A stretch of 40,920 nucleotides of DNA from Heterotrichella gracilis. Lineage: Eukaryota; Sar; Xanthophyceae; Tribonematales; Xanthonemataceae. Under the pieces are notes generated by a model that was not told the origin of the DNA, did not search any database, and saw only the letters and a program-made list of their open reading frames with translations. The position numbers and the translations under genes were made by a program. Positions 1 through 33,928 of this stretch are shown here, piece after piece. The first letter of the stretch is position 1. Every line of letters begins with the position of its first letter. Location: the NCBI GenBank assembly GCA_032358255.1, contig JAULBX010027064.1:1-40920 (forward strand), given 5' to 3'.

Positions 1-67
1 CCCCCAATTCCCCACCAATCAACACACCCGCGCGCACCCCCTCACCCCCCACCCCCACCCCCCGCAG

Positions 68-3000
68 ACGCCACCCACCCCCCCGCCCTCCTGGACCCCT
101 CCTCAGCCGCCATCACCACCGCCACCCACCTGGCCACCCACCCCTGGCACGCCCTGCCCCCCGCCCTGCACCTGCGCTGCCTGGCCACCCTGTGCATGGA
201 CGTGGTGGAGGGCTACGGGCTCAAGAGCCTGATCGCGGCCCGCCAGGAGGAGATCAGCAGGCTTCAGGCTGACCTGTACCATGAGCAGGCGGAGGTGGGT
301 GGTGGGTGGTGGTGGTGGGGTGGGGGTTACGATGTGGATGTGGATGTGGGTGATGGGGTGGTTACAGCTGGCGGGAAAGGGGTTGGAATATATTTCATAA
401 TATATGAGGGGTATGGGCTCAAGAGCCTGATTGCTGCGAGGCAGGAGGAGATCAGCAGGCTGCAGGCGGAGGTGGGTGGTGGGTGGTGGGGTGGTGGGGG
501 TGGGTGGGGGGTACTTGGTGGATGTGATGTGCGTGGTGGTATGAAAGCGGGTGGCGGGAGGTGGGGGTGTATTGTGAGGGTACAGGCTCAAGAGCCTGCT
601 CGCGGCCCGCCTGGAGGGGTTTGGCAGGGTGTGCCCCTCCAAACAAGTTTTGCCCATGTGTTTACCCTGCCAGTTGAACGTGCGAGTAAACTGTCTTAGC
701 AACCCTGCGCAAGGTGATTTCGGCCCTGGTTTGCTGGCTGTCTGCCGTCACTCATCGGCTCAATCCCCCCCGCCCCTCCCCCCCCCAGATGCGCAAGAAG
801 CAGAAGGAGGAGGAGCTGCGCAGGAGGGAGGATGAGAAGCGGAAGAGGAAGCAGGTAGGAAGAATCGCGCACAGATGGATCCAACATGCCACCTTGAGCT
901 GATGCACACACATGCATGACCCACCAAACACTTGATGTTTTTGCCAACATATAATGTATGCGGCATTGGACTCGGATGAAACGTTTGCCGAATTGGTATC
1001 TCCATACACCTCTGCCGCACCCACCCACATGCACCCCCTCACCCGCGCACGCCCCACCGCCCCTGTGCCCATTTCACCCCCCATCACTCCCCGCAGCCTG
1101 GCGACAAGGGGGATGCCCCTGATGGCGATGAGGAGGGGCGGGAAGCAGAGTCCCCCAGGTCGAGAGCGGGCGATGACGAAGCGCAGCCAATGGATGAGGT
1201 GAGGGGGGTGGGAATGCGTGTGTAGGGTTTAGGGTTTTGGGATGTGGGATGTGGGATAAGGTTTTTCTTTGGGGAGGGGTCGGAGCAGGGGCACGACAAG
1301 GTGTAGGGTTTGGGGTTTGGGGTTTTATGCGGTCGACTTCTGAATGAGCCTGAGCAGCATCCCTGGAACCTGGAGTAGCTAGGGTTTTATAGCTGATGCT
1401 TTATGGTTTACGGGTTCGTGGACAGGGTCTCTGTGCATAATCAGTCGTGGGTAGAGTTCCCAGCACTTGACATTGGACGCATGGCACACACCCTCCCCAC
1501 CTCCCACCCACCCACAGGATGATCGCGACCCGCTGCTGAGTGAGGCGGAGCGCCAGCGCCGCAACGAGGAGTGGGCTGCCCGTCGGGCGCAGGTGGAGGC
1601 CGCCATTGAGGAGCAGGTGGTGCGCACGGAGCCGCTGGGGTGGGACAGATACCACAGGAAGTACTGGCACTTTGCGGGTGGGTGCGGTGGGGTGTGGGGG
1701 GAGGGGGAGGGGTGCTACTGTAGTGGAGGTGGTTGTGGTGGTCTTCTGTACAGCTGAGCCCTGCTTGGCACTTTGAAACGCTGCCAATTCTCTATAAAAC
1801 CCTACCAAATCCTGTGAAATCTGGTCAAACTTCTCAGGGTGCTGCCGAAACCCCATTTCAGCCCACCAAAACCCCACCATACCCTGGAAGAAATCCTGTC
1901 TGCAGGCGAGCCCAGCGCCATCTTTGTTGAAGCCCCCGACGGCTCCTCCATGGGCATCTTGACCAGCCTGGCTGAGGTTGAGGGGGTGTTGGCGCGCCTC
2001 AACCGCAAGGGACCCAGGGAGCGGGAGCTTCACGCGGGGCTGAAGCGGCTGGTGGGGAGGCTGGCGGAGGGGGGGGGGCTGGCGCCGCCGGCGGGGGCGC
2101 TGGACCTTGGGGATATACCCAGGTGGGTGGTGGGGGGGTGGGGATGGGGGTGGGAGCCTGACATTGGGGGAGGTTGGGGGGGCGGTGCTCCCGTGAGTGC
2201 GGTGGTGGTGGGTGCGGGGGAGCACATGGCTTGCATCTGCCGGGGTTATGGGTTGCAGGGTTCTTTGTATCATTAATTAGAGGTTTCGGTTACCTTGGGA
2301 TGGTGGGTGTGTGCCGCAACCAACCAACAATGCAATCACCCCTTCTCCTCCTGGGGGGCATCGTCACCGAAACCCTAAAACCCTAACCCTCATCCTGCAG
2401 GGGCGTCGTCACCAAAACCCTAAACCCTACACCCTCAACTTGCAGGGGCGTCGTCACCAAAACCCTAAAACCCTAACCCTCATCCTGCAGGGGCGTCGTC
2501 ACCAAAACGGGGCGTGAGAAGGTCGCCCGCCCCATCGACGCACTTGCCACCGCCTCCGAAAAAGCCACCGTGCGGGCCGCCCTGTCCTCCCTAGAAACCC
2601 TCCTCACCCAGTTGCATGCCGCGGGTGCGCGCATGCCTCTGGGGATCAAGGAGCTGAAGCGGCGGGTGCGGGCTAGTGACAGCCTGGATGGGCTTGTGGC
2701 TGTGCTTTTGGATGTGGAGGACAACGTGGGGGTGCTGGGGACCGGCATGCCGCGGGGTGAGTGGCGGGGTGGAGGGGGCAGGGGAGGAAAGGGTTGTAAA
2801 TTGGATCATTGTTGCAACATTGTATTGCAAAATGTTGACAAATTACTTGTGACGCGGCATTTGAGTGCATGGAGATGTCGTCATTCCGCTGCCTTTCCAC
2901 TGCCTTGGGTCTTTTGCACCTGGCTTACCTGTAGAGTGTGTTCTGAGGTTTGTGCGTGTGTGTGTGGATGTCATGGGGGCACATTCTACCCCTGTGATGT

Positions 3001-5932
3001 CCACATCCAGCGCTGCAATATACAAATGGCGTCAGGGTGGGCACTCACATTTAATCCCGTCCCTCCTTCCCCATGCAGAGCCTGTGGCACGGACCCAAGG
3101 GGAGGAAGCAGCGGAGGGAGAAGCAGGAGGAACAGGCGAGGGCGAGGGGGCCGAAGCCCCTGCAGAAACCCCTGCAGACCCTGCTGAGAACCCTAGCGAG
3201 CCCTCCGAAGGTGAGCCTGTGGCTACAGATGGGAAGCGAAACCCTAAAGAGGGTGGGCAGGGTACCAGCACGACTGCAGCTGCAGATGCGCGCCAACCCT
3301 CTGGCAAAAACGCTACATCGTCCGGCCAAAACCCTACCGCCGCACCCAACACACAGCCACCCCACCCACCCACGCTCCAGCCGGGCGCCGCTGGGGCGGG
3401 GACCGAACCCGGAACCTCCGGGGCCGAACACCCGCCCCCCCAGCTGCCGACCGTGTCTATTGGCGCCACGTCAGCGGCGTACGGCGCCACGTCAGCGGAT
3501 GATGCTGACGAGGATGAGGAGGAGGCGGGTGACGGGGATGGTGGCGGTGGCGGTGGTGGTGGTGTGGAGGTGGACATGCGCCTGTATGTGACACCCGAGC
3601 AGGAGCTGGATTTCTCAGATGGGGAGGGGCGGAGGGTGAGTATGTGTAGTATAAAGGGTTTTCCCTGGTAGTGCGGTGGCATATGCATATATATCTACTT
3701 GCTTACATGCATTCCAGCAGTACAGCCAAATCAGCAATCCATCTTTTAATCAATTTTTGGTAATTCTGTCACACCATACCATACCAACTTTTGGTAATTT
3801 TGTAGTTATAGGTTTTGGCATTTTTTGTCGGTTTTTAGCCCAAGCCCTCCATTGATTTTTGCGCAACCCCTCCCGCTACAACCCAAAGCCCACCTCCCTC
3901 CCCTGCCCCAGCGCAACAACAGCTGGTGCAGGGCCATAACTCTAAACCCTAACCCATCCCGAAACCCTACGCCGTGTACACTAACCCTCCCTCCCCTGCC
4001 CCAGCGCGACGACAGCTGGCGGCGTGCCCTGTGGCGCAGCACTCGGGAGAGGGGTGTGTGGCTCGGGGACCTCAAGCGGGCGGGGGGTGGGGCGCCGCCG
4101 GCATTTGCTGCATACCTGGCGGCGGTGCTTGTGGACAGGTGGGGGGTGGGGTGGGGGTGGGGTGGGGTGTCTGGTGGGCTGGTGGGGGGTTTGGGTGAGG
4201 TATGTGGTGCTGGTGGTGGTGGTGGTGAGCGTGTGGAGGTGAAGTGTATTTAGTGTGTTTGGGGTGAAGCGTATTTTATTTTTATGGTGAGGTAGGTGGT
4301 GGTGGTGGTGGTGGCGGTGGGGTGTGTGCGTGCCTCTTGTACACATCCCGTCTACCTTTAACCACTTAAGCAGGGATGCCTTTGGTGTGCCAGTGCCTAC
4401 AGTCGTAATGGCACGCAGGCCTTGGTTCCAGTCACTCCGGTTTCCCCTATTTCCAATTCAGAAACCTTATGGTACCGGGACGAAAACCCTCTCACCTGCA
4501 TCTATGTGGGAAACCCACCCCCCCACCCCCCACCAATCGTCACCCTACCTCCCACCCCCCGCAGAGCCCAGCCCCTCCTTCAAAACCTCCAGCAGGGGGC
4601 CGCTGCACCCCGCGCCACCACCACCGCCCCCGCTGCCCCCCTCCCGCCCGTCCCCGCCGCCCCCCGCACCGCCCCCAAGGGTGGCGACAGCCGTAAGCGA
4701 GGCCGCAGCGACTCCCGCCCTTCGCCCGAAGAGGGGCCAAGTGGCAAGCGCACAGACCGGAGCGGGTCCAGACAGGTAGGGGTGGAATAGATATACGAGC
4801 TGAGAAATTGAACAAGCAATTGATAATTTGTAACTTATGCGCTCTGCATTTAAAGTGTGAGGGTCCAGGTATGGTGGGAATGGCCGCAAGGAATTGAGGG
4901 GGTGCAGTGAACTGGATAATGACCAATTCAGTAGGTTTTGTGCTGTATCTGTGCATGCATGTTCAACCTACCCGGTATTGAGGCGGCCCGGACAAGGTAC
5001 CCGGAATGGGTCCTCACCTGGACAGTTTCACACCCTATCCAGAACCCTATTTCAGGGTCAGGGTTCGCTTGTTGCAGGGCACACCCCGAGCTGGTGAGGA
5101 GGCCTCGGCAGGGGGGGCAGTGGAGGACGAGTGGGCTGATGACCACTGGGAGTACACGTGTCTGACATGCGGCCTGGGGGGAGACCTGCTGTGCTGCGAG
5201 GTGGGTGGGGAAAACCCTACACCCTGAAGTCAAACAATTATGCCGAAGAAAACGTGGGCCGTGTTCAGTATGCTGGTTTACTGCTGGGACACAGGTGGTT
5301 CTATGTGCCTTGCACTGGCGCCCCTCCCCCCCACAGACCCTGCATCCATGAACATCCTGCATCCAAAACCCTAAGAGCACCCCTGCCTACCCCACCACGA
5401 TGCACTGGACCCCTAACCCCTACACCCTTCCCGCATTCCCCTGCCTGCCCCAACACCCCAAACCAGATTCTGAAAATCCTGCTCCCTTCACCCCAAAACC
5501 TTGCACCTAAGCCCTAAATCCTCATCGCAGGCCCCTGCCTGCCCCAACACCATGCACCTGGACTGCGCCGGCCTGTCAGAGGTGCCTCCCGGGGATTGGA
5601 TCTGTCCCCACCACCCGCCGGCGGACTACCCCGAAAACCCCGACAACCCTCTGCCAGACCCTAGTGCCAAGCGCCCCTCGCGCAAGGCGGCCCGCAGGGC
5701 TGCCAAGGCAAGCTTAAAGGCCCTTGCCAATTCGGGTAAATTTGGTGGCGACAGCGTGGAGGGGAGCGGTGCGCCAGGGGTTTCAGCGGAGGATGGTTTT
5801 CAACATCCCCATGGGGGCGAGGGTGAGCAGGAGGTGCTGCAAGGGGGAAATGGAAGGGGGGAGGTGGGGGGAGGGGAGAACGGGGCTGCTGCGCCCCGCC
5901 TGCCCAAGATTCGGATAAAGCTGCGGCAATAG
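68..5932 (+). CDS. DDT-WHIM-PHD chromatin-remodelling partner protein (5' partial)
   Basis: The gene is cut by the left window edge; bases 1-67 are the C-rich end of an intron. Exons joined by GT-AG and phase: 68-294, 789-854, 1097-1198, 1518-1677, 1906-2122, 2491-2756, 3079-3635, 4005-4138, 4565-4775, 5078-5200, 5531-5932, giving 820 residues to a TAG stop. The first exon is the C-terminal half of a DDT domain (LHLRCLATLC, then LKSLIAARQEEI). A Lys/Arg/Glu coiled coil follows. The WHIM motif spans the 1677/1906 junction (LGWDRYHRKYWHFAG|EPSAIFVE). An acidic, low-complexity linker is encoded at 3079-3635. The PHD finger is split between the last two exons (CLTCGLGGDLLCC, then CPNTMHLDC and WICPHH); its last zinc ligand appears to be His rather than Cys. 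The family (ACF1/BAZ-like, plant DDT proteins) partners ISWI remodellers in the nucleus, so a nucleosome-spacing or histone-reading role is inferred. A candidate TGTAA poly(A) signal is at 6335. Several introns carry copies of adjacent exon edges. Exon borders are hand-called. Confidence 0.82.
211..617 (+). repeat. Three tandem copies of the end of DDT exon 1
   Basis: The end of exon 1 (211-294, YGLKSLIAARQEEISRLQA) is repeated inside the following intron at about 406-475, still in the same reading frame. A shorter decayed piece sits at about 585-617, in a different frame. The second copy ends in the same GAG|gtgggtgg donor as the real exon and lacks about 19 bases. Copy spacing is about 200 and 170 bases. 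The duplicated unit therefore includes the exon end, its donor and the G-rich intron start. Confidence 0.88.
2356..2517 (+). repeat. 45-bp tandem array of 3' splice sites with telomere-like repeats
   Basis: Units begin at 2356, 2401, 2446 and 2491, exactly 45 bases apart. Each starts with GGGCRTCGTCACC, runs into AAACCCTAA-type telomere-like sequence and ends in a TGCAG acceptor. Only the last acceptor (AG at 2489-2490) opens the continuing frame of the DDT gene. Acceptors at 2400 or 2445 keep the same phase, because 45 is a multiple of 3, but they read into a TAA at 2474. They would be poison splice sites if used. Confidence 0.92.
3893..4020 (+). repeat. Duplicated acceptor and exon start, 93 bp apart
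   Basis: A run of 22 identical bases (pyrimidine tract, CCCCAG acceptor and first codon) begins at 3893 and again at 3986. After each copy comes an RxxSW codon block: RNNSW upstream, RDDSW in the assigned exon. The spacing is 31 codons with no stop between, so use of the upstream acceptor would insert 31 residues in frame. Confidence 0.85.
5381..5551 (+). repeat. Three copies of the PHD exon 5' edge
   Basis: The start of the last PHD exon (5532-5551, CCCCTGCCTGCCCCAACACC) is present identically at 5438-5457. A more diverged version is at about 5380-5400, and it also keeps a matching ATGCACTGGAC continuation. The upstream copies lie in the intron that splits the PHD finger. The same intron carries telomere-like CCCTAA words. 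Confidence 0.82.
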
Positions 5933-8178
5933 CAGCGATGCGAGGTCCCTTTCTTGCTTTGAGTTTGACAGGGGCCTGGGGCGCCGCAGGGGGGTTGCCA
6001 TTATTTGCACAGGTGTTCAACAGGGTTTGATGGTAGGTAGCAGGGTCCGCCTGAGCGTGCATGCTGTACCGATTACCTTGGTATGCTGCATTGGGCCAGG
6101 ATCTATCTCATCTGTCACGGGCCCAATACCACATGCAGCTATGTGCAGCTTGTAGGTCTTGATAGTCAGAGCTACAGTACTAGGTATTCTAGGGCGGTGT
6201 GTTGTTGAGACCCTAAATCTGAACCCTAGGTGCCATGTTTGACCAAAGTTAGACACTCGTGTTTGGTCCACCTGCTCTCATGGGTATGCGGGTGCTGCTA
6301 TGCCAGCATACTCTAACGCTGGAAGGGGCAATCGTGTAAAGAAGATGTCCCTATTTGCCGAACATTAGTCGATGGAGGTCTTGGTTGTGTCACACTTGGG
6401 CGCTTACAGCTGTGGACACAAACACCAGTGGATGGAGTTCTGATTGTGTCGCACATAAGTGCCTGCAACACTTGCAGCTGTGGACACACACGCCACTGTT
6501 CAAGGCCCAGGCGCAGGTGCAGGGTACAGGTCCTATGCCACCCACCCAGTGACTACCGCCCTGCCATGCCAATGCCCATGCCGCATGTGAGCTGAGCTGC
6601 AGGACTGCATGCAGACCCAAAGCAGTAAGAGCTGCCTGCTCGATGGGGTCCTGCCCCCAACCCATCTAGCTAGCTAGCTCGCTAGCGATAGTACCTAGTG
6701 GCGGGCAACTGTTTTGCACTGCACTTGCGACACTCCACTGACAGTCCCACTGCCAGCCAGTGGCTCCCCCATGGCGTCGTGCACTTGGTTTGTGCCTCCG
6801 CGGCCCTGTCCTGCGCACGATTAAATGCACCACTACCGCCCGCGCCACGGCACGGCCCTTAGCAAAGGCTCGCTGACAAGCATGATAAGGCCTTCCTTTA
6901 AGGTGGTATGGTACAGCAGGGCTGTGGCACACGCTGCAACCGACCTTTGCACCTGCTTTTGTACCACTTTTAGCTGTACAGACAACACGTGCCGCCACGC
7001 AAAGCTTCTAGAAGTTTCTTCTTCGAAGAGCCCGCGAAGGCCCCGACGCGGCCTGTTTTGCCAGTCGAGCTGACACGATAAAGTGCACAGCGGGTGCCAT
7101 CGAAGCACCGTTTTGCTCCGTATCGCGACGCTATGGACCAAATCTTTCCTTCCGTACCGTCCTGGATCCCGTCATGGTGCACCGTATCTGATGTCATTTG
7201 ACCTCCCAAATGGCTGAGCAGGCGATTTTAGTAGCACCTGATTTTGCCCCAAGATACCACATGCATGTCACGTGCTGTGCCCAGCTGGCACCGGTTTTGG
7301 CCCTGGAAATTGGCGCTGGCTGACTCAGGAAGGGGATTTTCCGCGTTCGTGGCGCGTAGCTGCCTATGAGCTCTCTGAAAGGGCACTCGCTTTTGGGGCA
7401 AAAAGCGCTCGTGGGCCAATGAAAGCTCGAAATCACGAATCGAGGGAGGCACGTGATTCTAAACCCACCAAAACACAATTGCGGGCATCGCCACGTTTGG
7501 AATCCGCCGGGTGTCGCAATGCAACGTACATGCACCCAAATCCGGGTGCCCGCCTCCGAGTTCGGGCTCAAACTGATTTTGACCCCCAGCAAACTCAGCC
7601 ATTTGCATAGGGTCTTCACGTTGCGTCCCAAATCAGGCCGTGCCCAGGAAAAGCGCAGCTGCAGCCCCTAGTATCTCGGATTTGGTACAGCCGGAGATAT
7701 CCCCTTTGGGTCTGGCGGTTGAGGCTGGCACGACCTCCTGACGTGGATTCTGACCCCGTATCTCGTCATTTGGCACCCGCTGATTGCGATTGTGAAGCCA
7801 GGCCAGGCCCGCAGCGAGTGCAAGGCCTGCACGTACATACGCCCAAACCAAACCGGTGCTACTATTATTGCTTCGCCTTTCCTCAACAGCTCACACGTAA
7901 CGACCGGAAAGCGGTTTCCAGCAAAGCATACCTCGAACACCTTCACCCACGCGTCCAATTGCACAACGCTGTCTCACCAAACACACTCGCCGCTTTTCCC
8001 ACAAGCTCATTCGTGAAAGCGCAGATCTGTTTGTCAGCACCCTCCAGGGGCCTTCCTGCGCTTGACAACCGCTTGTTAACCCGCTTCGTCAAGTTCTGAC
8101 TGGCTTATTTCTACGTTTAGTCTCCAGCCGTGCTCTCGAAACCCACATGTCAGCACACCCCAGTCACGCAAGTCGACG
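5933..8178. other. Intergenic region, 2.2 kb
   Basis: This holds the 3' flank of the DDT gene (TGTAA at 6335-6339) and the upstream region of the kinase gene. Open frames are present on both strands, but none shows a recognised motif or a convincing splice chain. A TAGC/CTAG-rich palindromic stretch lies at about 6667-6690. From roughly 7160 to 7790 there are short recurring phrases (for example CCGTATCT..GTCATTTG at about 7185 and 7756), which may be remnants of an old dispersed repeat. No RNA gene was seen. Confidence 0.6.
6369..6497 (+). repeat. Imperfect ~64-bp tandem direct repeat, two copies
   Basis: The first copy starts GATGGAGGTCTTGGTTGTGTC and the second, about 62-64 bases later, GATGGAGTTCTGATTGTGTC. 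Both end in CAGCTGTGGACACA. The repeat lies in non-coding sequence downstream of the DDT gene's candidate poly(A) signal. Confidence 0.75.
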
Positions 8179-11100: not shown

Positions 11101-11524
11101 CGCAGCACCCTCCATGGCGCGGACCCCCACCGCCGAGGCCCCCACCCCCAGCGCCACCACGTCGGCCTCCGCCGCCGCGCCATCCCCATCCCCGGCGTCG
11201 CCCGCCATGGCGGCGCTCGCGGCCTCAACCCTCTTCCGCCCCTCTGAAGCCGCCGGGCCCTCGCACGCCCGCGGCTCGCTTTTCAGCGCCTCCCGGCGCA
11301 GCATGGAGGGGCACATGTCGTTTGGCATGATGCCGCCGAGCTGCTCGCGGCACTCGGACCAGATCATGCACATGGAGACCCTAGTGGAGGGTAGCAGCTC
11401 GGAGGGCACCAGCCAGCAGAGCTCGCAGCAGGGGTCCTTTGGGGACCTCATGTCCTACGGGAGCTCGGCGGTGGTCGCCCCCTGCTCGACAGCCACATTT
11501 CTGGACCCCCTCATCTCGTTGTGA
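8179..11524 (+). CDS. Single-pass membrane TKL-like protein kinase with HGD catalytic loop
   Basis: Exons 8179-8410, 8889-9251, 9444-9674, 9816-9949, 10159-10450, 10642-10801 and 10957-11524 join in phase to 659 residues. The start is the first ATG of the open frame; the Met at 8209 is an alternative. A hydrophobic segment at about residues 84-106 (LLIATYLMGAFLGVFLSLII) is followed by a Pro/Ser/Thr linker and the kinase domain (~183-490). It has P-loop GKGAFGRVYKG, VALK lysine near 209, catalytic loop HGDLKATN near 344, DFG near 370, MPPE in place of APE, DVYALAMIMWEL and RPTIATVL. The tail (~490-659) is rich in Ser, Ala and Pro. The Arg before the catalytic Asp is Gly, so it is a non-RD kinase, but Lys, Asp and DFG are kept and activity is plausible. 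Kinases of this layout are common in chlorophytes; the substrate is unknown. The intron at 9252-9443 repeats a TGCAAARCCCTAAC phrase three times. TGTAA occurs at 12241. Confidence 0.85.
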
Positions 11525-12519
11525 GGCCGCTTTTGGACCCTCATTGGGGGCCACCTGCGGCCCGCTGTACATCATGGGATGGGGGAGGGGAGTGTGTGCA
11601 TCCAGGACTGGGTATGCCACTTCAGTCAGCAGCAATGCCATCGGAACAGTTTTGAGTGGTTGGCGCAATTTTGTCGAAAGCCCAGCCTGTACTCCGTGGC
11701 ACACGGGTACCAATTTTGGTAGGATAGGATTTTGGAGATGGGAGCTGTTGATATATATTCCCTTCTATCGTGTTGCCCCCCTGGTTCAGAACCTCGTTAT
11801 CCAGGTCGCGTGGAGTGTTTTTTCTAAATCTGTCGCAATAACTTCTGATTTATTACTACTTCACTGTTATCTGCCTAATAGGAAGTAGCACTCCGTTGCT
11901 CAGCTTTCGTTTCCCATTTCTGGCACTCAGTCCGCGGGGGCCTGGCTACAATCAGCGTCACATCTTTACTTTCGGCTTACTTGAAATGGGTTTTGCTTTT
12001 GAAGGTTTACACGTCCACTTCACACGGAATGTACTGTTCAGCCATCCACTGATGTGCTCCTCATCCCGCTATTTATGTTAGCTTTGAATGGAAATCCCCC
12101 TCGCTACAGTCCTTCAGTACCATCCATTCCTATATGGAGCTACTAGGACACCATTCAGACGAGCCCCCCACATAACCCCCCCACATCTCGTGGGTCATGA
12201 CCATCAACTGGTTGGTTGACCAGCGGCGATACACATATTCTGTAAATATTTATTACGCCAGCTATCACCACCTGAACAACAATGTGCCACCCATGTTTGA
12301 CGTGCCCAACTGTGCATCCGATGGCTCATCGCTGGGGGTGATCTCCAAATATTCCATTTGAATGTACGAGCTGTCCTGGTATTGGGTTACAGAGGCCGGT
12401 GCGGCTTAGCAGGTGGAAAGTGCACCTTCAAAATTGATAGAAATATGGTTTTGGCACTTGCCCGACTATTGGCGGTCACCATCGCTCAGCAGCCTGTTTA
12501 TGGGGCAGCAGCTTGCCAC
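11525..12519. other. Intergenic region between convergent genes
   Basis: The sequence is AT-richer than the genes. It contains the likely 3' UTR of the kinase gene (TGTAA at 12241-12245, sense) and that of the minus-strand UPF0047 gene (TTACA, i.e. TGTAA on the minus strand, at 12387-12391). No supported gene is seen. Confidence 0.55.
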
Positions 12520-12850
12520 TGGCTAGGGTTTTTGCCAGGGTTTCCCCACCGCCACACCCAGCCCTTGCCCCTCGCCTGGCAGAGTGACCATTAGGGTAGG
12601 TCCCTTGCCGGGCCGCTGTCTAGGGTTTCTGACAACACCCCTGCTAGGGTTCTTGTGCCACTCGATGCCACAATGTGCCAATACTCCCATCAGCACACCC
12701 CCTGCCCTGCCCTCCCCTGCCACTGAGCGCGCACCCCATTGCCTGGCTAGGGTATCACCTGCTGCGCATTCCCACCTAGCATCAGCGGCACCAATAACGC
12801 TTGTCCTGCTGTGTGGCCATTAGGGTGCGCCTACTTGCCTGGCCACTAAA
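12520..12850 (-). pseudogene. Two decayed downstream copies of the UPF0047 terminal exon
   Basis: Read on the minus strand, about 12775-12843 matches the last UPF0047 exon including its TGA: RRTLMATQQDKR against [13 protein letters not shown] second, older copy at about 12545-12615 reads GPTLMVTLPGEGQG. Spacing is about 220-230 bases. All three carry CCCTA words in the minus sense, so the region first looks like a telomere-like minisatellite. The amino-acid pattern shows that it descends from the exon. Confidence 0.75.
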
Positions 12851-13001
12851 TAGGGTTGTAGCTAGGGTTTCTGCTAGGGCTTATCATCCCACTGTTATAA
12901 AGATCCGTGCCCTTGCCCTGCAGTGCGCTCCCAATTGCCTTGCCACTGGCCACCCAGCCTTCCTGCCAGGCTTCCTCCAAATGGGCTCTCCTCCACTGCC
13001 A

Positions 13002-15363
13002 TCAGCGGTCCCCGTGGCGCTTGCCCTGTAGGGTAACCACTAGGGTTCGGCCACCTGCGTGGTCCCTGTGCTCGCACAGCCACACGCCCTGCACAGCCAC
13101 ACAAGGAAATGTCATAATTAACTAGAATAAAGACAATTAGATCTCAAAAAATAAAGTCAGTAAGCAGTGGCTGAGCCTCATCATGCACACACCAGCAGGC
13201 ACCAGCTACGCATGGACACCCTGCCACACACAGCAGCCAATGGGTGGAGGCCGGACCCTAAACCCTTGCATGGCCACCCACGGCAGCCAGTAGGCAACAG
13301 CCACACATGCACAACAGCCACCCAAACAACAGCCAATGGGCAGCTGCCATATCCTAAACCCTAAACCTCTGCACAGCCGCACACAGCCACACCCTTGCAC
13401 AGGAACACACAGCACCCATCTCTACCTCCTCCTGTACCCTACAACCTGTGCCGTTCACGTGCATGCACAAACAGCACCCGGTGTGCAGCCGGCCCACCCC
13501 AGGCTGCGAGCAAGAGCTGACAAGGCACCGGCAGTGCACCTGTGCGCAGTGGGCCATGGCCAACGTGGTTTGGGAGAATGCACCACATCGCCCACCACAC
13601 CACACACCACCACCACCACCACTATACACCCCCCACCCACCCATTCCCACCCCACCCCAAACCCGCCACCCGCCACCATCCACCATCCACCATCGTGCCC
13701 AGGTTGAGCTGCCCCCTCCCCCCCCCAACCCCGCCACCACCACCCCGCCCCCCACCTGCCATGTGCCGAGGTTCAAGTTTCCGCGTGTGATTGGCACCGT
13801 CACCGATGACCCAAACATGCTTGCCTTGAGGTGCGCGGGCATGTCATCCGGGCCCTCAGAGGTGTGCACCCAGGGGGCGCTGGGGCCCTGCGGGAGGGGT
13901 GGGTGGGTGGGTGTGAGGCGATTGTGGGTGAGCGTGTTGCCTAATGAGAGTGTAATGAGAGACCTGGGTGTAAAATTGCGGGTTTGGATGCTTGATTAGC
14001 GTTGGTGATCAGGGTGTGGGCGGTGTATGTGATCGGTGACGGTGTAGGTGAAATAACCCTTAAGGGTTTGTCATGACTGCTGCAAGGTTGGTACCATGAG
14101 CTTCAGCGGGGGACACAATGGGCAGCAGATGAATTAAAGGCCAGAGAACCCTTGAAAGCCGCAGGGCTCCAGTTCCAGGGGTTGCAAGGGAAAACCTGTG
14201 CAGGTAGGGTTTTGCGCAGGGTTTTGCGCCGCGCACCTCTGGCACCACCTTGTTGAGGAAGGTCTCTGTGTCAGCGCGCACATCGGGGTCGTAGTTCTGC
14301 GGGGGAGGATGGATAAAAAGGGTCAGGGTTTTAGGGTTTTGCGGGGGCGGTATGAGATCTGGGCCGCTAAATAGGCTATTCGGGAAAAAGGGCGGGTGGG
14401 GGGGGAGGGGGGGGGGATCCACATGACGATAGTATCACCCCCTCTATCGTGACCAAAAATGTCGTCAGCTTGTGCAATATAGGGAAGAGCTGCTTAAAGC
14501 TGCCATGCCACGGCGCTACCTGATACGTTATTGGCTGTGCACTTGCTGAGCATGAATTTAAAGACTATTCTAGTACACACATGCAGTAGTAAACAGCACA
14601 GATGCTTGCGTCTGAGTGCTGAGTGCAACGGGAATGTGGTTGCTGGCTGAGCGGTAATAGGCAGGGCACCAAAACCCTAGACCACCCCCCCCTCCCCTAC
14701 AAACCCTACAACGTTGACCCTAGTTTAGGTTGTGGGCTAGGACCACTTACCTCGTTTATGGTGAGGGACGCAGAGGTGTGCTGGACTGCAGGGCAAGGGA
14801 ACGCATATTAGGGTGGTGTGTGCTAGGGTTTTGGGAGCAAGCAGGATCGTCACAGTGCGGGTGGGGACACCGCTGTGGCTCAGGGTATGGTCAAGGCAAA
14901 TCAGGGTTAAGGTGACTAGCCAGATGGTTTCAGGCAAGCGTTGAAAGTTCAGCTTCCCTGTGCAACCCGCACAACACGGCAGCAACAGTAGGCATGTGGG
15001 TGCGGGTTAGGCCATTGGACGTACTGAAGATGTGGCAGAGCCCGATCTCAAACTCGTGGGCCGACTTCGATATCTTTTCGACGATCTGCGCAAGGGATGA
15101 CAGCGGCGAGTGAGGCAGTGTTGCTCAAGGTGGTGCGCATGGGAGATGCATGCATGCATAAAAAACGGTTGCATGGGGGTCAAGAAAAGGTACAGCAAAA
15201 TGGAGGTCAAGCAAAGGTTCTCCAGTGCAGCCATTGGCTTAAAATGGCTGTTTTGACACAGCCCTCGGTGCCCACTGGGCGAGTTGCTGACCTGGTTGGT
15301 TATCAGGTGGCACCCTCTTTTGGCTGGGGGTAGTGTGAACTCAACCTGCGCCCAGTGCGCCAT
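13002..15363 (-). CDS. UPF0047 / YjbQ-family protein (putative secondary thiamine-phosphate synthase)
   Basis: Six small exons on the minus strand: 15292-15363, 15025-15085, 14751-14785 (a 35-nt micro-exon), 14237-14296, 13756-13887 and 13002-13088. All have GT-AG borders and matching phases, giving 148 residues, the usual family length. Motifs in order: [83 protein letters not shown] and [16 protein letters not shown], the DPDVR acidic motif, DDMPAH and GTWQ..CEHR are hallmarks of UPF0047. Bacterial YjbQ has been linked to a weak thiamine-phosphate synthase activity; the biological role is unsettled, so function here is inferred. No transit peptide is visible, which suggests a cytosolic protein. 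The gene is divergent from the RRM gene, 533 bases away. Introns carry CCCTAAA words before acceptors. Sense TGTAA lies at 12391-12387. Extra copies of the last exon follow the stop. Confidence 0.9.
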
Positions 15364-26403: not shown

Positions 26404-29400
26404 CTAAGCCCCTTGCCGCTCCTTGGCCAGCTTCTTGCGCAGCCTCCCAGGGATGGCCCTCTTCTTCCCCCCAACCACCACCGCACCCCCAGCGCCACCA
26501 CCGCCCACAACCACTTTGCCCCCTCCAGCACCACCACCGCCAGCCACTTTGGCAACCCCACCCTTGGCCCCCTGCTTTTGCCTCAATTTCTCCTGATCCA
26601 GTATCGAGGGCTTCCTCCCCTTGGCAGCAGGCACAGCCCAATCCTCCTCATCCGATGACCACGCCCCTGGCTGATCATCCTCACCGTCATCATCACTCCC
26701 GATCGCACTGCCGCTTAATTTCCACCTTGATGGGCTGTCATCGCTGTCGCTGCCATGCGCTGGCTTCCGCACCAATGCTGCCCTCCCCTTTTCCTTGACC
26801 GGACCAGGGAGTTTCCCCCCCTTGGAGGCCTTCCCAACCCCACTGCCCCCCTGTTTCCTGTCGAGGTAGTATCCCACACCCTGCTCCCCAGCCTGAAATA
26901 TGTACCCTGCTTTCGCCCCCTTGAACCCCTTGCTGGGGAGGAAGGGCTTGGCCCCTGGCTGAACACCCCCTGCACTCGCATCCGATCGGCCCTTGGATTT
27001 GGACCCCTCAGGGCCCCGATCGGACACCCCTGGTTCCTCCCCTTCATCTTCTGATGATGATGTGTCCCCTGCTGACTGGGTCGTCTCCTCTGGGGCGGGT
27101 TTCTTTTTCCTCCCCTTTTCTGTCTTCCTCTCCCCCTTGGTTTTCAGCCCCAGGGACCGCAGCACATCATTTGGGTCCACGCGCGCTTCCCCGTCGCCAT
27201 CCCCGCCTGTGCCACCGATTTCTGCCCCATCCTCGCCTGCATGTCCAGCAAAACTGAATAAATGAATATGTTAAATTTTGCAATCAGAGGGTTCGTGGCA
27301 GTGTGGAGGACAAGTGGAGGTGCGATAACTTTGCACCATTATATTTGTAACATGGTGCAAAGCAATTGCACTGCTGCTTTTGAGAACAACATCAAATTCT
27401 TGCTGGGATGCACGTCGCCAATCATGATTGAACCAGTCCAAGCTTGCGCATACATCTTATGTGTATTTTTTGTATTTTTGCACAACATTGGTACAAACAA
27501 GCCCGCACAGAATCACCACAACCCTCACCACCCCTCCCTGCCGCACCCACCTGCCACCGGCAACCCCGCCACCTTTGCCGCCTGGCGGTACGCCTCCCCC
27601 AATTTCAACAAATTTGGGTCCACAGCCTGGCCATGTGACTGCAGCAGCTGGGCCAGGGGGTCCGCCAGGGGGGCGAAAGTCCGCGTGAAGAAGGAAAATG
27701 CGTGGCCGTTGGAGGACAGGCGCCCGGTGCGGCCCACACTGCAACATTAGGGGGTAGGTGAGGGATGCGGGGGTGGGTGGTAAGTGGCTCATTGCAGCAC
27801 ATATTGTATATTTTTGGCAAGAGCTTGGAAGCATTCTTGGGGTCTGACAGGGTGGGCAACATTTAGTGTGAAGACATTAAATGCGTGGCCGTTTGACGAC
27901 AGGCGCCCCAGGCGGCCCACGCTGCAACAAAAAGGGTTGGGTGGGTGGGTGGGGGCGAAGGTCGTTTTTCACGATTAATACAAAATGATACTGCTCAGTA
28001 CTGGCAACGCATGCCCCAAAGTGGGTGAACTCGTTATTGCATAGCCTTGTAGCTACAGGCAGGCTGTGTAGGGTATTGTCCTCTATTAGGGCGCTGCATT
28101 TAGGGTTTAGGCCTTTGGCGGACGCAACTATCCAAATTGAAGAGAAGCCATAATTGACAAATATATTGCAGGCTGTTCATGGGTTTAATGTTAGCAGTTC
28201 AGGTTGTAGGGTATCAGCCCCTTACCGATGGACAGATGTGCATGAATGTAAGGTTTAGGGTATCGTGTCCTTACCGATGGACATATGTCTCCAGGTTGGG
28301 TGGGAAGTCATAGTTGACGATGTAGGGCAGGTTGTTTATGTGCAGACCCCTTGCAGCCACATCCGATGCCACAAGCACCTGGACTTTGCCGCCACGAAAA
28401 TCTCGCATGGCCTCCTGTGGGGTGCGGGGAGGGTTTCTGGTTAGGGTTTGCAAGCCAAATTGGTAGGGAATTGTGCGCGGGTTTGGGTGGGCTCCACCTC
28501 CACCAACAACACCCTAACTTCACATATTCCCTAGCCACAATAACCCCAACAGCACCCCAACCCCAACCCCCCACACCGTCCTATATCCCCCACACAAACA
28601 ACAAAACAACCCACCCCGAACTCCCACCCACCTCCCGCTCCCCCTGCGTCCTCTCCCCGTGCAGCACCGCCACCCGCACCCCCTCCCCCTCCAGCAGCCC
28701 CGCCACAAAGCGCACAGTCTTGATGCGGTTAGCAAACACAAGCAGGCGGGGGGGGTTGCGCAGCCCCGTGGAGGCCGCGCGTATGGCTGCCACGTGGCGG
28801 GTCAGCTTGGCGGGCTTCTTGTGCTCCGCGCACACGTGGACCACCTGAGGGGTGGGGGGTGGGTTGGGTGGATGGTGAGATGTGCGTGTGTGTGAGTGTG
28901 TGTGGAGGGGTGGGGGGGAGGGGGTGGTGTTTTATTTGCCAAGGTGGTTGATCATTTAGGTGGATGCGCATGGTTGTGCAGTAGGCATTGGGGCGTGGCA
29001 GCGCGTGGGTGGTGGTGGAGATGGCACATGGTGTGTGCATCATGACGCATGTGTTGTGACCCCAACCACAGGTAGGTGGAGGGTATCTGCTGGTTGCAGG
29101 TCACATGCAATGGCCCCCCACCTCCCTCCCCCCCACAGAACCCCCCACCCTACCACGGCATGCAATGCCGCCGCACCCCCCATGGGAGCCCCACCCCGCT
29201 ACGGGATGCAATAGCGCCCCACATCCACCCCCCACCCCCCACCTGCGTGACCGTCTGGCTGATGGCCATGGCCCTACCCTCCACCTCCACCACCACGCCC
29301 CCTTGCACCCACAGCGCAGCCTCGTCCGCCAGCTCAGCAGGCCAGGTGGCGGTGAACAGCAGCACTTGGGGGCGGGGCAGTGCCACGTCAGCGGGGGTGA

Positions 29401-31795
29401 TGGGCACCTTTTTGGCCTTTTTGCCCGCCTTTTTGGAGCCCCTTTGGTCCAGCTGGAGGAAATTCCGGACCCGGTCCAGCTGGGGTTTGAATCCCAGGGA
29501 CAGCATTTTGTCTGCCTCGTCGAGAACCACATATCGCACGCCCCCTGTGTAGGTGGAGGGGGGTAGGTGTTATGTGGGGTATGAGGGGTTAGGCGTGCAT
29601 CAGGCAATGTTGCTCCCCTTGTTTACATACATCCCTTCGTAAGAAATTAACACTCTTTTGTAATAATCTGCCGCCCGCTCTTCACCCTGCTTTCCATCAG
29701 CACACGCACAGGCATGATACACACAGAATGCAGACACCATGCCCCCTCCACCTGGCCCCTCCGCCACCCACCTAGCTTGATGGCCCCCTCCTCCAGCAGC
29801 TCCAGCAGCCTGCCAGGTGTCGCCACCAGGATGTGCGGGCAGCGGGACAGAGCAGCAACCTGCCGGGGAAGGGGTAGGGGTAGGGGTTGGGGTTGGGGAG
29901 GATATAATCACTGGGTGATATAGGAGAGCGCAGGCTGGCCATATCAACCCCCATGCTGGTGCCTTCATGTTGCCTGGTTGCATCTTTCACCTATGCACCT
30001 CAGCAGCTAGCATTCAAATGGGGAGGGCATCCTAATCTAGTGCGAACTCTTCTTTTCAACCCTACAATGTGGTTTGTGCCACACCTGCGCTTCCTTGCCC
30101 ATGCCCCCATACAACTCGGCAGCCCCCATGCACATGCAGGAAAACCCTCGCACAACCCTAAAAACGTTTCCACCAAACATGACCCCAGGATTTTGGTTAG
30201 CACGGCAAGAAGGAAATCGTGCAAAACCCTAAACTGTGGTTTGTGCCCCAACCTGCGCGTCCTTGTCCATTCCCCCATACACCTCGGCCGCCCTCAGGCC
30301 GCAGCTGGGCCGCAGGGTGCGAGCCACACTGAACACCTGCTGGGCAAGCTCCCTGCGGGAGGGGAGGGAGGGAGGTCAGGGGCTTGATGCGGGTGTGCCA
30401 CTCCACAGCAGAACAAGCCAATGGAGCGGCCATGCACTGCGTTGGGAGCCTTTGTGATGTGGTAAGCACAAGATGAGCACGGGCGGGGGTTCAGTTGTCT
30501 ATACTGCGTTCATTTTCTATTGCAGGCACATGTGGCGCTGGAAGTGCACAGCTAACCCGTATTCTGCCTGTATTGGTGGAAAGCAAGTAAGTAGCTAACG
30601 CGGGTGTGGCGCAAGTATGCGTGGCCCTTACCGCGTGGGGACCAAGATGAGCACGGGTGGCGTTTCTGGTTTTGTGGCTGTCCCATGACCTTCCTGCAGC
30701 AGGCGCGGCAGGCAGGGGAGTAGGTACCCTAGGGTTTTGCCGCTGCCTGGCTCCGCCACTGCCTGCACATCGCGCCCCTCCAGGGCTGGCGGCCAGCACC
30801 TGCGGGAAATATTTCCAGTTTTATATCAATACAATTGAAAATTTTCAATATTCTTTAGTGCTGCCAGCACCAAGGAGGACATGTAGATGTGCTATTAATG
30901 GGGCGTCAGCATGCAAGAAGCAGATACAACTGTGCTTCCCGATAGTGCCGTGTGCCTGCCTAGTGAGGCATGCGCCCATAGTTTTATGCTTGACCCATGG
31001 GGGATGCACCTCCAGCAGTTGGAGCCACACACACTGCAATTTTAACCGTCACAAGGTTGCTTGTATAAGCCAGCCCTCCCCACACAACTCTGCAAGGTCC
31101 CCCTTATGCATGCATGCATTGCATGTACACGAGGAATGTGGTCCATAACAGGCTTGCACCAAGCTGCACATTCACAGCTCAGAATTCGTATACAATTAAG
31201 CGAGTATGTGGCCGTATTCAGGCTGCTGAAACGTTTGCATGCATACAAATACCAGGCATACTACCTGGTGACGGCGGGGCCATATGCATGCATGCTCAGG
31301 GCGGGAAACGCACTTTGCCTGTATGGCGGTCGGCTCCTCGAACCCGTGCGCCATCATGTACCGCTGGATGGGCTCGGGGAAAGGCTTGAGCGCCTCGGAG
31401 GGCTCCCTTAGCTCCACGTGCTGCACCTTCTTCTTCTTGGGTGGGGGCTGCTCGCCCGCCTTAGAATCTAGCAGCTGAATGCTGCTGGACAGGCGCACCC
31501 CCCCCTCCTTGCGCTTCCTTGAACCCTCATCTGGTTGTGCCTCAACGGGGATTTCTTCAGGAGCGGGTGGAGCCACCGCCCTGGGGCGGAACTCGCTGTC
31601 GCTGTCGCTGTCGCGCCACTCCTTGTCTGCCTGGGAGAGCACGGGGGGGGCGTAGCACACGCCCTGGCACATCCGCCTGGTGCGGTTCTTCTTGCTGCGG
31701 TTGCGGGTGCGCTCCTCGCGCTCGCCATCCTGGCCGGCGGACTGCTTCTTGGCCCGCTTTTTGGCCAGCTTGCGCGCGGAGTAGTCCTGGCCCAT
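26404..31795 (-). CDS. DEAD-box ATP-dependent RNA helicase (Dbp3/RH5-like core) with long acidic/Gly tail
   Basis: Exons on the minus strand: 31314-31795, 30632-30799, 30253-30352, 29772-29859, 29243-29544, 28632-28844, 28275-28414, 27547-27738 and 26404-27253, about 844 residues. The 27547 donor (GTGCGG) was chosen because it restores phase; GTGGGT four bases earlier does not. The N-terminus is Lys/Arg-rich (ARKLAKKRAKKQ), nucleolar in style. Motifs in order: Q motif GFEEPTAIQ, Walker A AEPGSGKT, PTREL, TPGRL, DEAD in VLDEADKML, TAT in LFTATWP, LVFANRIKT, ASDVAARGLHI and HRVGRTGR. Walker A has Pro where Thr is usual. The tail (~280 residues) is rich in Lys, Asp and Gly, holds a GYIFQAGEQGVGYYLD motif and ends GRLRKKLAKERQGA. 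A role in rRNA processing is inferred from family resemblance. Several introns contain copies of neighbouring exons. TGTAA on the minus strand is at 25947-25943. Confidence 0.86.
27868..27928 (-). pseudogene. Intronic pseudo-exon copy of helicase motif VI exon
   Basis: This 61-base segment aligns without gaps to the 5' part of the motif VI exon and its acceptor (27685-27745): 51 of 61 positions agree by hand count. The TTGCAG acceptor is kept in the same phase. The copy reads VGRLGRLSSNGHAFN against VGRTGRLSSNGHAFS in the real exon, so the motif VI Thr is replaced by Leu. It lies upstream in the transcript, in the intron before the real exon. Confidence 0.88.
28144..28296 (-). repeat. Echo of helicase motif V exon end and its donor
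   Basis: Two fragments in the intron echo the exon ending at 28275. At 28144-28182 a diverged copy of the exon block at about 28304-28342 can be aligned (GAAGYCATARTTGAC shared). At 28221 the donor-side phrase CTTACCGATGGACA recurs 49 bases from the real one at 28270, with a shared GGGTATC prefix. Confidence 0.72.
30068..30128 (-). repeat. Intronic copy of helicase motif Ia exon end
   Basis: The segment matches about 30235-30296, the 3' end of the exon plus its donor, at an offset of about 167 bases. Both contain TGTGGTTTGTGCC, CACCTGCGC or AACCTGCGC, and CCCCCATACAMCTCGGC. The copy is in the intron after that exon. Both are flanked by CCCTA words. A shorter echo of the preceding exon (AAGATGAGCACGGG) lies at 30470 versus 30644. 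Confidence 0.82.
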
Positions 31796-32645
31796 GGTGT
31801 TACACAGTGGGGGCCAAGGGGCGCTGCAGAGGGGGGTGCCACCACACACACGTTTGCAGGCCTGAAGCTTTGAATACAGGCGGGCTGGTGGTGAGGCTGG
31901 TTCTTACAACAAGTGTGCTGGGGAACCCGTGCAGTATCTTGAAGTACTGTGCCAAACCATAGCAGGCCAACGGAAATTGCGGCGAATTTCACATGGAAAA
32001 GGACTTTTCCACAATTATTTGAATTTTAAAGAAGACATTGAAAGTAATTGCCAAGAGGACACGTAAGCAGAGTCTTTCCAAACACAACTAAAAATCAGGC
32101 AACAGCTGCGTCAGTGCGTTTCCAGTTTTAAAATGACTAGAAGCACACTGTTGCATGGCAATTGCAACGGCAAAAATATGTCACGGCGTCAATACAACGG
32201 AAAGATGCAGCACTTGACAAACCAAATAATTTGCGACTGCCCAACGGTGTACGCAGCACATCAACCTGCTGCTGTTCCATGCATCTTCACCTGACTGGTT
32301 GCAACAGAATACAGCAAAGACTGCACACGCCATGCACCGTTAAAATAAGGCGGCCCCTTTACCCCCAAAAATTACCCAATATCAACTCGTGGCGCCAATG
32401 CCAATACGTCACACAGATCAGCCACTCTGACAGACCCACAGCTCCTGTTTCCGCACATCACCACCGCCCGTCCAAATCAGCGCTTGGCCAGCACAGCTGG
32501 CAAACCCCGCTGTTCCTTGAAAAGCCCCCAGCTGCAAAGCCAGGTCGCAGATGGTCATGTGGCCCGTGACTATGTCCAACTACCAACAGTCAATTCCAGC
32601 TACCAATGCCATGATTTGCAGAGAAAGCAGCCGTACTTCTATGGC
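31796..32645. other. Spacer between two minus-strand genes
   Basis: This holds the 3' flank of the methyltransferase gene (TTACA at 31904-31908, TGTAA in sense) and the presumed promoter and 5' UTR of the helicase. A decayed copy of the methyltransferase 3' end occupies about 32453-32580. Otherwise nothing is supported. Confidence 0.6.
32453..32580 (-). pseudogene. Decayed tandem copy of the methyltransferase gene 3' end
   Basis: Starting at 32453 the sequence repeats the last exon from 32649 at an offset of about 196 bases: GCACATCACCACCGCCCG, then CAGCTGGCAAACCCCGC, then GATG-GTCATGTGGCCC and ACTATGTCCA against TGATGTGGCCC and ACCATGTCCA. It includes the region of the stop codon. Indels break the frame. 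It lies downstream of the stop on the minus strand. Confidence 0.82.
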
Positions 32646-33928
32646 TCAGCACATCACCACCGCCCGGCCAAACCTGTGCGGGCACTGCGCCAGCCCCTCA
32701 CAGCTGGCAAACCCCGCCTTCGCTGCCATCTTCTGGAACGTGGCAAGGTACTCTGGCAAATCACAGGTAGTGATGTGGCCCATCACCATGTCCACTTCTG
32801 TGGGGGTGAGAACCTGGTAGGTGGCGCGTACCATGGCGTCGTAGCGCTGCATGTACTGGGGCCTGTCCTCGTCATCAAGCATGAACACATCCACCACCAG
32901 GAGCACGCCGTTGGGCTTGAGCAGCTTGCGGGCATGGGCAATGAAGGCCTGCTTGCTGGCCTGGTCGAGGTCAGCTAGTCAGTAGAAAATAGTGGAGGAA
33001 AAGTAAAAAACTGTAATGTAAAAAGTAATAAAACAAACAGCATCCAAAAATGACCCAGCCAGAAGAGCAGTCAGTCTTGCGCCGGCGCCAAGCAAGAGGA
33101 CCTCTGCACTACTTCGCATTTGAGTAATGTTTGTTGAACCCGCGTAATCCGAGGTCTGGCAAAGTTAGGTCAGCCCTTTTGTTGCCTACCTGGTCCAAGT
33201 GGTGGAGGGCAAAGGAGGTGAAAACGAGGTCATATTGGGCGCCTGGGGCGGAGCGCACGTAGCTGTGCATCTCAGAGCGGATGCACTGCACGGTACCGCT
33301 GTGTGCGGCCAGCGGGGCGGTCATGTTGGCGGTGGCGTGTTCAAGCGCCATGGCAGACTCATCCACGCCTGGGCATGCAAGAATTGGCGTAAAGATGGAT
33401 GCAAGAACACAGGGTAAGCCTGGTAGTCTGAGTTTTGCTGTTGCAACACCAGTCACTAGGAGTGACGGCGTCAAAGCCTCCAACTCAGTTTGGACCGTGG
33501 CCAGCCTAGCGTGGGCCATGCTGCTTTCTGACCCATGTCGGGGCGTGCGCACACAAGACCCTCTGAAACCCGCAACATTCATAAAAAAGCCCTAGATAGA
33601 GGTTTAACATCCTTGCATGGGGCGTGGGAACAGCAGGGGTACCAGTGAAGAATGAAATGCCACTGCAAGGAGGTTCACCTGTGTAGCTCTTGAGCATGGC
33701 GGGGATGGCAGGGTTGGACAGGAGGTGTTCAACCACATTGCTCGCATCCCCACAGCCCAGGTCGAGCATGTCGATCGGAGACGTGAAATGTGTTTCCAAA
33801 AAGGTGGCCACTGCAGCATATAGCTCCTTGTGACCCAGATAGTTCTGTGAGATGAGCTTCTTGTATACAGGCCAAGCTTCTTGGAAGATCTGGTCAGGAG
33901 CGGGCGAGCTGGCCACCGCTACTGTCAT
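32646..33928 (-). CDS. Class I SAM-dependent methyltransferase
   Basis: Three minus-strand exons, 33679-33928, 33190-33368 and 32646-32960, give 247 residues. The ATG at 33928 opens MTVAVASSPAPDQ. Motif I is MLDLGCGDASN (about residues 54-64). An acidic GVDES follows at the exon 2 start and YDLVFTSFALHHLD is the post-I/motif IV region. Exon 3 contains LLKPNGVLLVVDVFMLDD and a C-terminal segment ending in CPHRFGRAVVMC. This is a Rossmann-fold methyltransferase; the substrate is not evident. The exon 3 acceptor chosen is the CTCGACCAG|GCC at 32961; the more upstream CTAG (32975) breaks the frame. That intron end repeats the LDQ codons that end exon 2. Divergent from the Kish gene. A decayed copy of its 3' end lies downstream. 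Confidence 0.85.

What the first reader, a model, noticed from the sequence alone, without database searches (positions are those of the whole stretch)
1..33000. Exon-edge echoes: introns and 3' flanks carry decayed copies of the adjacent exon border
In at least four unrelated genes (DDT, UPF0047, helicase, methyltransferase) I can align intronic or downstream sequence to a neighbouring exon edge, with the splice site itself inside the duplicated unit. The cases cluster near 211-617, 2356-2517, 3893-4020, 5381-5551, 12545-13088, 27685-27928, 28144-28342, 30068-30296 and 32453-32793. Tandem duplication of a segment holding an AG|GT border is a recognised theoretical route to new or longer introns. 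So many independent cases at different ages in 40 kb suggest an active process. I know of no named description for this lineage.
Basis: partly seen in the sequence, partly recalled or inferred. Interest (0 to 1): 0.88.

Follow-up and report, generated by a model that had tools for sequence, protein, structure and literature searches.

The report
Telomere-repeat scars duplicate exon edges
In this unnamed green alga, short stretches around exon borders have been copied next to themselves many times, often with a little piece of telomere repeat wedged between the copies, which looks like the scar of broken DNA repaired with telomere-type machinery.

Summary
Eight of the nine listed sites are strong direct duplications; site 5 is weak. 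The window belongs to a 68.5 Mb assembly of a green alga (by best protein hits), and the pattern holds in 281 kb sampled from it: 116 local duplication families, echoes at 81 of 666 exon edges against 3 of 123 exon interiors, 62 of 859 intron interiors, 4 of 342 intergenic segments and none with shuffled neighbours.

The spacer between copies is often telomere repeat (TTTAGGG, as at contig ends): 40 of 81 spacers against 13.0 expected. Conversely, 14 of 41 internal telomere arrays taken in list order are flanked by a direct duplication, against 0 of 838 mismatched flank pairs. Some are clean: copy-(TTTAGGG)n-copy.

Best explanation: staggered breaks, fill-in and end joining, often with telomerase-added repeats. 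Copies spanning a splice border persist because one is spliced out and decays in a lengthened intron. New introns by AG|GT duplication are not supported (0 of 25 pairings).

The parts
208..330 (+). Site 1, parental exon end of DDT/PHD gene (exon to 294, donor GCGGAG|GTGGGT)
406..514 (+). Site 1, second copy with donor; 8 of 8 codon differences to 208-270 synonymous, possible alternative exon
576..628 (+). Site 1, third copy, decayed (0 synonymous, 6 non-synonymous codon changes against copy 1)
2355..2508 (+). Site 2, 3.4 copies of a 45-bp unit: exon start GGGGCGTCGTCACC + AAAACCCTAAAACCCTAACCCT filler + acceptor TGCAG; exon predicted from 2491
3893..3926 (+). Site 3, intronic echo of acceptor and exon start
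3927..3985 (+). Site 3 spacer with 7 overlapping telomeric heptamers
3986..4019 (+). Site 3, acceptor and start of exon (exon predicted from 4005)
5380..5457 (+). Site 4, intronic echoes: 5380-5410 copies the exon start, 5412-5457 copies intron end, acceptor region and exon start
5506..5563 (+). Site 4, parental intron end, acceptor and exon start (exon predicted from 5531)
12512..13062 (.). Site 5, weak repeats among many TAGGG words downstream of UPF0047; not counted
27657..27760 (-). Site 6, parental helicase exon start with acceptor (exon predicted to 27738)
27839..27943 (-). Site 6, intronic echo, 77% identical
28201..28239 (-). Site 7, intronic echo of helicase exon end and donor
28251..28288 (-). 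Site 7, parental exon end with donor (exon predicted 28275-28414)
30058..30131 (-). Site 8, intronic echo of helicase exon end with donor and TAGGGTT
30132..30224 (-). Site 8 spacer with 4 telomeric heptamers
30225..30299 (-). Site 8, parental exon end, donor GACGCGCAG|GTTGGG (exon 30253-30352; one search ran past it) and TAGGG
32450..32578 (-). Site 9, downstream copy of part of the methyltransferase last exon
32646..32794 (-). Site 9, last-exon part taken as the parent (inferred from the open frame 32646-32978)

Best explanation
The echoes are scars of DNA-break repair inside genes. A staggered break leaves complementary single-stranded ends of roughly 25-100 nt; both ends are filled in, which copies the sequence between the nicks; in many events telomerase first adds a few TTTAGGG units to a 3' end; the ends are joined, leaving copy-(TTTAGGG)n-copy. 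When the copied stretch spans a donor or acceptor, one copy stays in the mRNA and the other is left in the intron, which grows and decays. Shown: the duplications, their exon-border excess, the telomeric filler, its position between the copies, and a telomerase domain in the assembly. Inferred: staggered break, fill-in by a CST/Pol-alpha-type activity, telomerase as the source of the filler, and the order of steps.
For: Telomeric heptamers in 40 of 81 spacers, against a mean of 13.0 and maximum of 24 in 1000 draws of length-matched intron segments outside any duplication; 35.4 against 7.0 per kb. Filler lies between the copies: 40 of 77 spacers, 17 of 77 left and 10 of 77 right outer flanks of equal length; outer flanks are partly exon, and in non-exon sequence alone it is 40.0 against 14.9 per kb. 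Starting from telomere arrays instead: 15 of 39 arrays of two or more units in the sample have duplicated flanks, against 0 of 39 swapped flanks, 46 of 600 intron points and 14 of 600 intergenic points; 14 of 41 arrays with three or more perfect units, every site in list order from C2 to C31:35051, score >=40 (7 of 25, 7 of 16) against 0 of 598 and 0 of 240 mismatched pairs. Clean cases: L047 (34 bp, 33 identical, gaps to the array 2/0), L048 (29 bp, 1/0), L052 (60 bp, 6/2), L065 (49 bp, 7/0), L063 (54 bp, 8/0), and L044 (26 bp, 0/0, but score 38, below the cut). TTTAGGG is taken as the telomere repeat: arrays lie at bases 7-76 of C70 and 4-73 of C140. Telomerase_RBD found at C626. Direct, not inverted: 170 direct matches at >=40 bits within 600 bp against 2 spaced inverted ones; the other 25 inverted hits are self-palindromes. 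Copies against their exons: 187 synonymous, 178 non-synonymous, 8 stop changes in 83 of 170 matches; 28% synonymous expected if both sides were free, so one side is constrained and the other drifts.
Against: 41 of 81 spacers, and the spacers of window sites 1, 6, 7 and 9, carry no telomeric heptamer; 27 of 41 arrays show no flank duplication at score >=40. In L029, L032, L033, L052, L063 and L065 arrays also lie outside the aligned pair, often with a further copy, so repeated events or later tandem growth must be assumed. No empty site was found: the four loci tested have no second whole copy in the assembly, and no sister genome is held. In-register priming could not be judged (my search pattern biased the count). 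Gene models are self-trained without RNA data. Intergenic rarity (4 of 342) is not explained by the repair model alone.
Confidence: 0.58

Rival explanations
1. Telomere arrays came first. TTTAGGG arrays are fragile or stall replication, and local tandem duplication then happens beside them.
For: Arrays and duplications coincide; several loci have several copies and several arrays, with arrays outside the aligned pair (L029, L030, L032, L033, L052, L063, L065).
Against: If E-T existed first, duplication of E-T should leave a second T outside the pair; heptamers are in 40 of 77 spacers but only 17 and 10 of 77 outer flanks. In L044, L047, L048 and L051 no array of two or more units directly follows the second copy (single telomere-like words do lie nearby in L047, L048 and L051).
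Confidence: 0.24
2. Ordinary short tandem duplication followed by decay; telomere-like words in introns are splicing or regulatory signals (branch-point-like CTAAC, telo boxes) and coincide by placement near splice sites.
For: Heptamers are denser within 50 bp of donors (19-22 per kb) and 25-50 bp from acceptors (20 per kb) than deeper (5-16 per kb); CCCTAAA is favoured over TTTAGGG near acceptors (263 against 41 in the last fifth of introns).
Against: Arrays of three or more perfect units are not needed for a signal, yet sit between locus-specific duplications; spacers exceed length-matched introns threefold; near donors both orientations are about equal (243 and 255).
Confidence: 0.12
3. Assembly artefact: two diverged haplotypes stitched together at exon borders.
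For: Some copies differ by mostly synonymous changes (DDT 8 of 8), as alleles would; the assembly also holds a bacterial-looking contig (L006).
Against: No second copy of the whole locus for five tested stretches; other hits are 75 bases or less. Copies form arrays of three or more, carry telomeric filler, and reach below 80% identity.
Confidence: 0.05

Closest known systems
Short interstitial telomeric sequences inserted at double-strand breaks in mammals (Nergadze et al. 2007, PMC2246262; passages seen)
   Same: Short arrays of the species' own telomere repeat at internal sites, locus-specific flanks, some insertions with duplication of the break site.
   Different: There duplication is a minority (6 of 130 rodent, 4 of 25 primate loci in their Table 1); here 14 of 41 arrays have a detectable flank duplication of about 27-95 bp, often over a predicted exon edge. 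Their empty sites were shown; mine were not.
Small tandem duplications from CST-guided Pol alpha-primase fill-in at 3' overhangs (PMC8355091; passages seen)
   Same: Short direct duplications attributed to filling in both complementary overhangs before end joining.
   Different: No telomeric filler was mentioned in the passages I saw; here about half of the spacers carry it. No genetic test here.
Intron gain by tandem duplication of an AGGT-bearing segment (Rogers model; potato case PMC4974935, passages seen)
   Same: Splice sites lie inside duplicated units.
   Different: No new intron of that type found (0 of 25 pairings); the effect seen is intron lengthening.
Direct repeats near intron borders (PMC11782384, abstract and outline seen)
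   Same: Direct repeats around introns read as insertion or break-repair footprints.
   Different: Their repeats are 4-30 bp near both borders of an intron; here longer copies of one exon edge lie within the intron.
Plant telo boxes (PMC3022908, passages seen)
   Same: Short internal copies of the plant-type telomere motif in genes.
   Different: Telo boxes are commonest in 5' UTRs; no flank duplication was mentioned in the passages seen.

Membership tests
Interstitial telomeric sequence inserted at a break | Array made of the organism's own telomere repeat | tested here: met
   TTTAGGG arrays at the starts of C70 and C140 and internally
Interstitial telomeric sequence inserted at a break | Single-step insertion into a pre-existing sequence, shown by an empty orthologous site | tested here: inconclusive
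   No second whole copy for 4 loci; no relative's genome held
Interstitial telomeric sequence inserted at a break | Nucleotides in register at the primed 3' end | tested here: inconclusive
   Count biased by the search pattern
Fill-in (CST/Pol alpha) tandem duplication | Short direct duplication, not inverted | tested here: met
   170 direct, 2 spaced inverted
Fill-in (CST/Pol alpha) tandem duplication | Dependence on CST, Pol alpha, Ku | not testable with these tools
   Needs mutants
Rogers AGGT intron gain | Donor of copy 1 and acceptor of copy 2 at the same position of the unit | tested here: not met
   0 of 25 match-intron pairings, limited by self-trained gene models
Introner or other transposon with target-site duplication | Inserted sequence recurs at many loci | tested here: inconclusive
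   12 of 66 spacers of 30 nt or more have another hit in the 281 kb at E<=1e-4; contents not inspected. The recurring part recognised is the telomere repeat itself
Plant telo box | Single motif concentrated in 5' UTR and promoters | not tested
   Promoters not annotated

The most novel reading that the evidence does not exclude
In this algal lineage a telomerase-assisted, gene-targeted break-repair process is a main source of intron growth: breaks recur within about 50 bp of splice borders, are sealed with TTTAGGG filler and long duplications, and supply spare splice sites and spare exon pieces, some of which (as perhaps in the DDT gene) become alternative exons.
Probability: 0.3. Interest if true: 0.88.

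Novelty: new variant of a known kind. Interest (0 to 1): 0.72.

Why it matters
How introns gain length and spare splice sites is an old question with few datable events. Here 116 duplication families of different age sit in 281 kb, about half of the testable ones with a built-in tag (telomere repeat) and all with a built-in clock (the duplicated copy), so rate, placement and fate could be measured. It also links telomere machinery to gene structure in a way that my ten searches of the paper library did not show (for only the top 20 of 102 and 338 papers were listed).

Tried and rejected
Rejected: random repeats (no window match of 35 bits or more beyond 1 kb; no shuffled match). Not trusted: the absence of BLAST matches with spacing under 60 bp, since I recall that BLAST drops matches close to the main diagonal; my own ungapped diagonal scan shows few units below 60 bp and peaks at 80-120 and 160-220 bp, cause not settled. 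Uninformative: words shared beside arrays (looking for telomerase-RNA sequence; no 9-mer in more than 4 of 94 flanks) and junction phase. The first two gene-finder settings fused genes; the third was used, and it still fused or extended some window genes. L006 was left out of the counts from then on (it was); the 41 arrays in L027-L066 were kept apart from the 281 kb sample, but pooled them. Spacer counts use 81 of 85 single-match families or the 77 of these with spacers of 15 nt or more. and the PsaA search (no match) led nowhere.

Full report
What was checked. The window is G000:C456:1-40920, from an assembly of 68.5 Mb in 903 contigs. The helicase protein matches green algae best, Myrmecia bisecta at 56% and Coccomyxa at 52% identity, so this is a trebouxiophyte-like alga with no very close named relative in that search. 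The assembly is not pure: contig C100 (L006) is AT-rich and carries long bacterial-type open frames. I left it out of the counts from then on.

The nine sites. Eight are strong direct duplications. Site 5, downstream of UPF0047, barely exceeds its shuffles and has no credible exon border. In the window no match of 35 bits or more exists at offsets of 1-39 kb, while 15 exist below 1 kb, so composition is not the cause. Telomeric heptamers lie in the spacers of sites 2, 3, 4 (one of two pairs), 5 and 8, and not in those of sites 1, 6, 7 and 9.

Genome scale. I took 25 stretches of 10 kb, dropped L006, and with the window had 280,920 bases. In the first 20 stretches (L006 still included), 110 direct matches of 45 bits or more lie less than 500 bp apart, 3 at 500-1000 bp, and 0-5 per 500 bp of offset beyond. 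In the 281 kb, 170 matches of 40 bits or more with spacing of 20-600 bp form 116 families. A self-trained gene finder gave 78 gene models; it has no RNA support. Coverage by duplicate copies is 15% in the last 40 exonic bases before donors, 7-10% deeper in those exons, and 9-12% in the following intron; after acceptors it is 11% in the first 20 exonic bases, against 6% at 40-60 bases and 10% at 160-200 bases upstream in the intron. By class it is 9.9% of introns, 9.4% of exons and 3.0% of intergenic sequence.

Two cautions on that excess. Exon interiors lose duplications to selection, and an exon-derived copy stays recognisable longer because its parent is conserved. Those two effects may account for the excess of edges over introns. 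They do not explain why intergenic DNA, where duplications should be harmless, has so few. That points to a process tied to genes; I cannot say why.

The telomere link. Reading the spacers showed AAACCCTAAACCCT-type sequence again and again. The alga's telomere repeat is taken to be TTTAGGG, found at the start of contigs C70 and C140; three perfect units occur 666 times in the assembly (341 and 325 by strand, overlapping hits counted). Telomeric heptamers occur in 40 of 81 spacers against 13.0 expected, and in spacers more than in the outer flanks (40, 17 and 10 of 77; 40.0 against 14.9 per kb of non-exon sequence). The converse test does not start from duplications at all: of 39 arrays of two or more units in the sample, 15 have flanks sharing a direct repeat, against 0 of 39 swapped, 46 of 600 intron points and 14 of 600 intergenic points. 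Of 41 arrays with three or more units, taken in list order from C2:4499 to C31:35051 without skipping, 14 reach score 40 or more (7 of 25, 7 of 16) against 0 of 598 and 0 of 240 mismatched pairs. At a looser cut-off of 36 it is 17 of 41, but mismatched pairs then reach 38. In 10 of those 17, a predicted exon overlaps at least one copy (predictions on stretches of 0.5-3 kb).

What the clean cases look like. L047: a 34-base copy, TG, three TTTAGGG units and TT, then the same 34 bases with one change. L044: 26 bases, CCCTAAA units, then the same stretch with one gap and one change (score 38). L051: an exon end with its GTGCG donor, TTTAGGG units, then the same exon end and donor. L029: four copies of an exon edge separated by three perfect or imperfect CCCTAAA arrays. 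The simple ones read as insertion of telomere repeats with a long target-site duplication. The multi-copy ones (L029, L030, L032, L033, L052, L063, L065) need repeated events or tandem growth, and would also fit an array-first order.

Fate of the copies. Against their parental exons, echoes lying in introns show 187 synonymous, 178 non-synonymous and 8 stop single-base codon changes, from 83 of 170 matches, where 28% synonymous would be neutral on both sides. That fits a constrained exon and a mostly free copy. The DDT copy at 406-468 is an exception: all 8 changed codons are synonymous, so it may be used. No pairing shows the register expected if an AG|GT duplication had made the intron (0 of 25). 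The effect is longer introns with spare splice sites.

Mechanism. Two known processes together give this structure: fill-in of both ends of a staggered break, shown for 3' overhangs to need CST and Pol alpha-primase in mammalian cells (PMC8355091, passages), and telomeric repeat addition at breaks (PMC2246262, passages). The same passages of PMC8355091 recall that CST-Pol alpha fills in telomere overhangs; that telomerase extends 3' ends is recalled general knowledge. That a telomerase exists in the assembly is shown by its RNA-binding domain. Break, fill-in and telomerase action are inferred. Half of the spacers carry no telomeric word; these may be older, or joined without telomerase.

Limits. 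No relative's genome was available, so no empty site is shown; four loci searched in the assembly have no second whole copy. Orientation near acceptors favours CCCTAAA (263 against 41 in the last fifth of introns), which I read as tolerance by splicing, not as a cause. Spacing peaks at 80-120 and 160-220 bp remain unexplained.

Noticed in passing
L006 (G000:C100:5001-15000): 37% GC contig with open reading frames of 444, 1532 and 502 aa that look bacterial by eye: the algal assembly seems to hold bacterial contigs.
   Followed up: partly
L005, L007, L012-L014, L016-L019, L022, L025, L026: 25 contiguous self-palindromes of 29-284 bp, 68-98% matched, in 281 kb, a class apart from the direct duplications.
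   Followed up: no
window 37495-37826: Degenerate tandem repeats of about 60 bp inside a long exon of a kinase gene (minus strand).
   Followed up: no
L011 8396-8486 and 8686-8776: Two 91-bp copies 98% identical, 290 bp apart, with no telomeric filler and no predicted exon: perhaps a small mobile element.
   Followed up: no
281 kb sample: Spacing of local duplications has two peaks, 80-120 and 160-220 bp, with a fall beyond 220; nested events may explain part.
   Followed up: partly
443 predicted introns of the sample: TTTAGGG and CCCTAAA are about equally common in the donor-side fifth (243 and 255) but CCCTAAA dominates in the acceptor-side fifth (263 against 41).
   Followed up: partly
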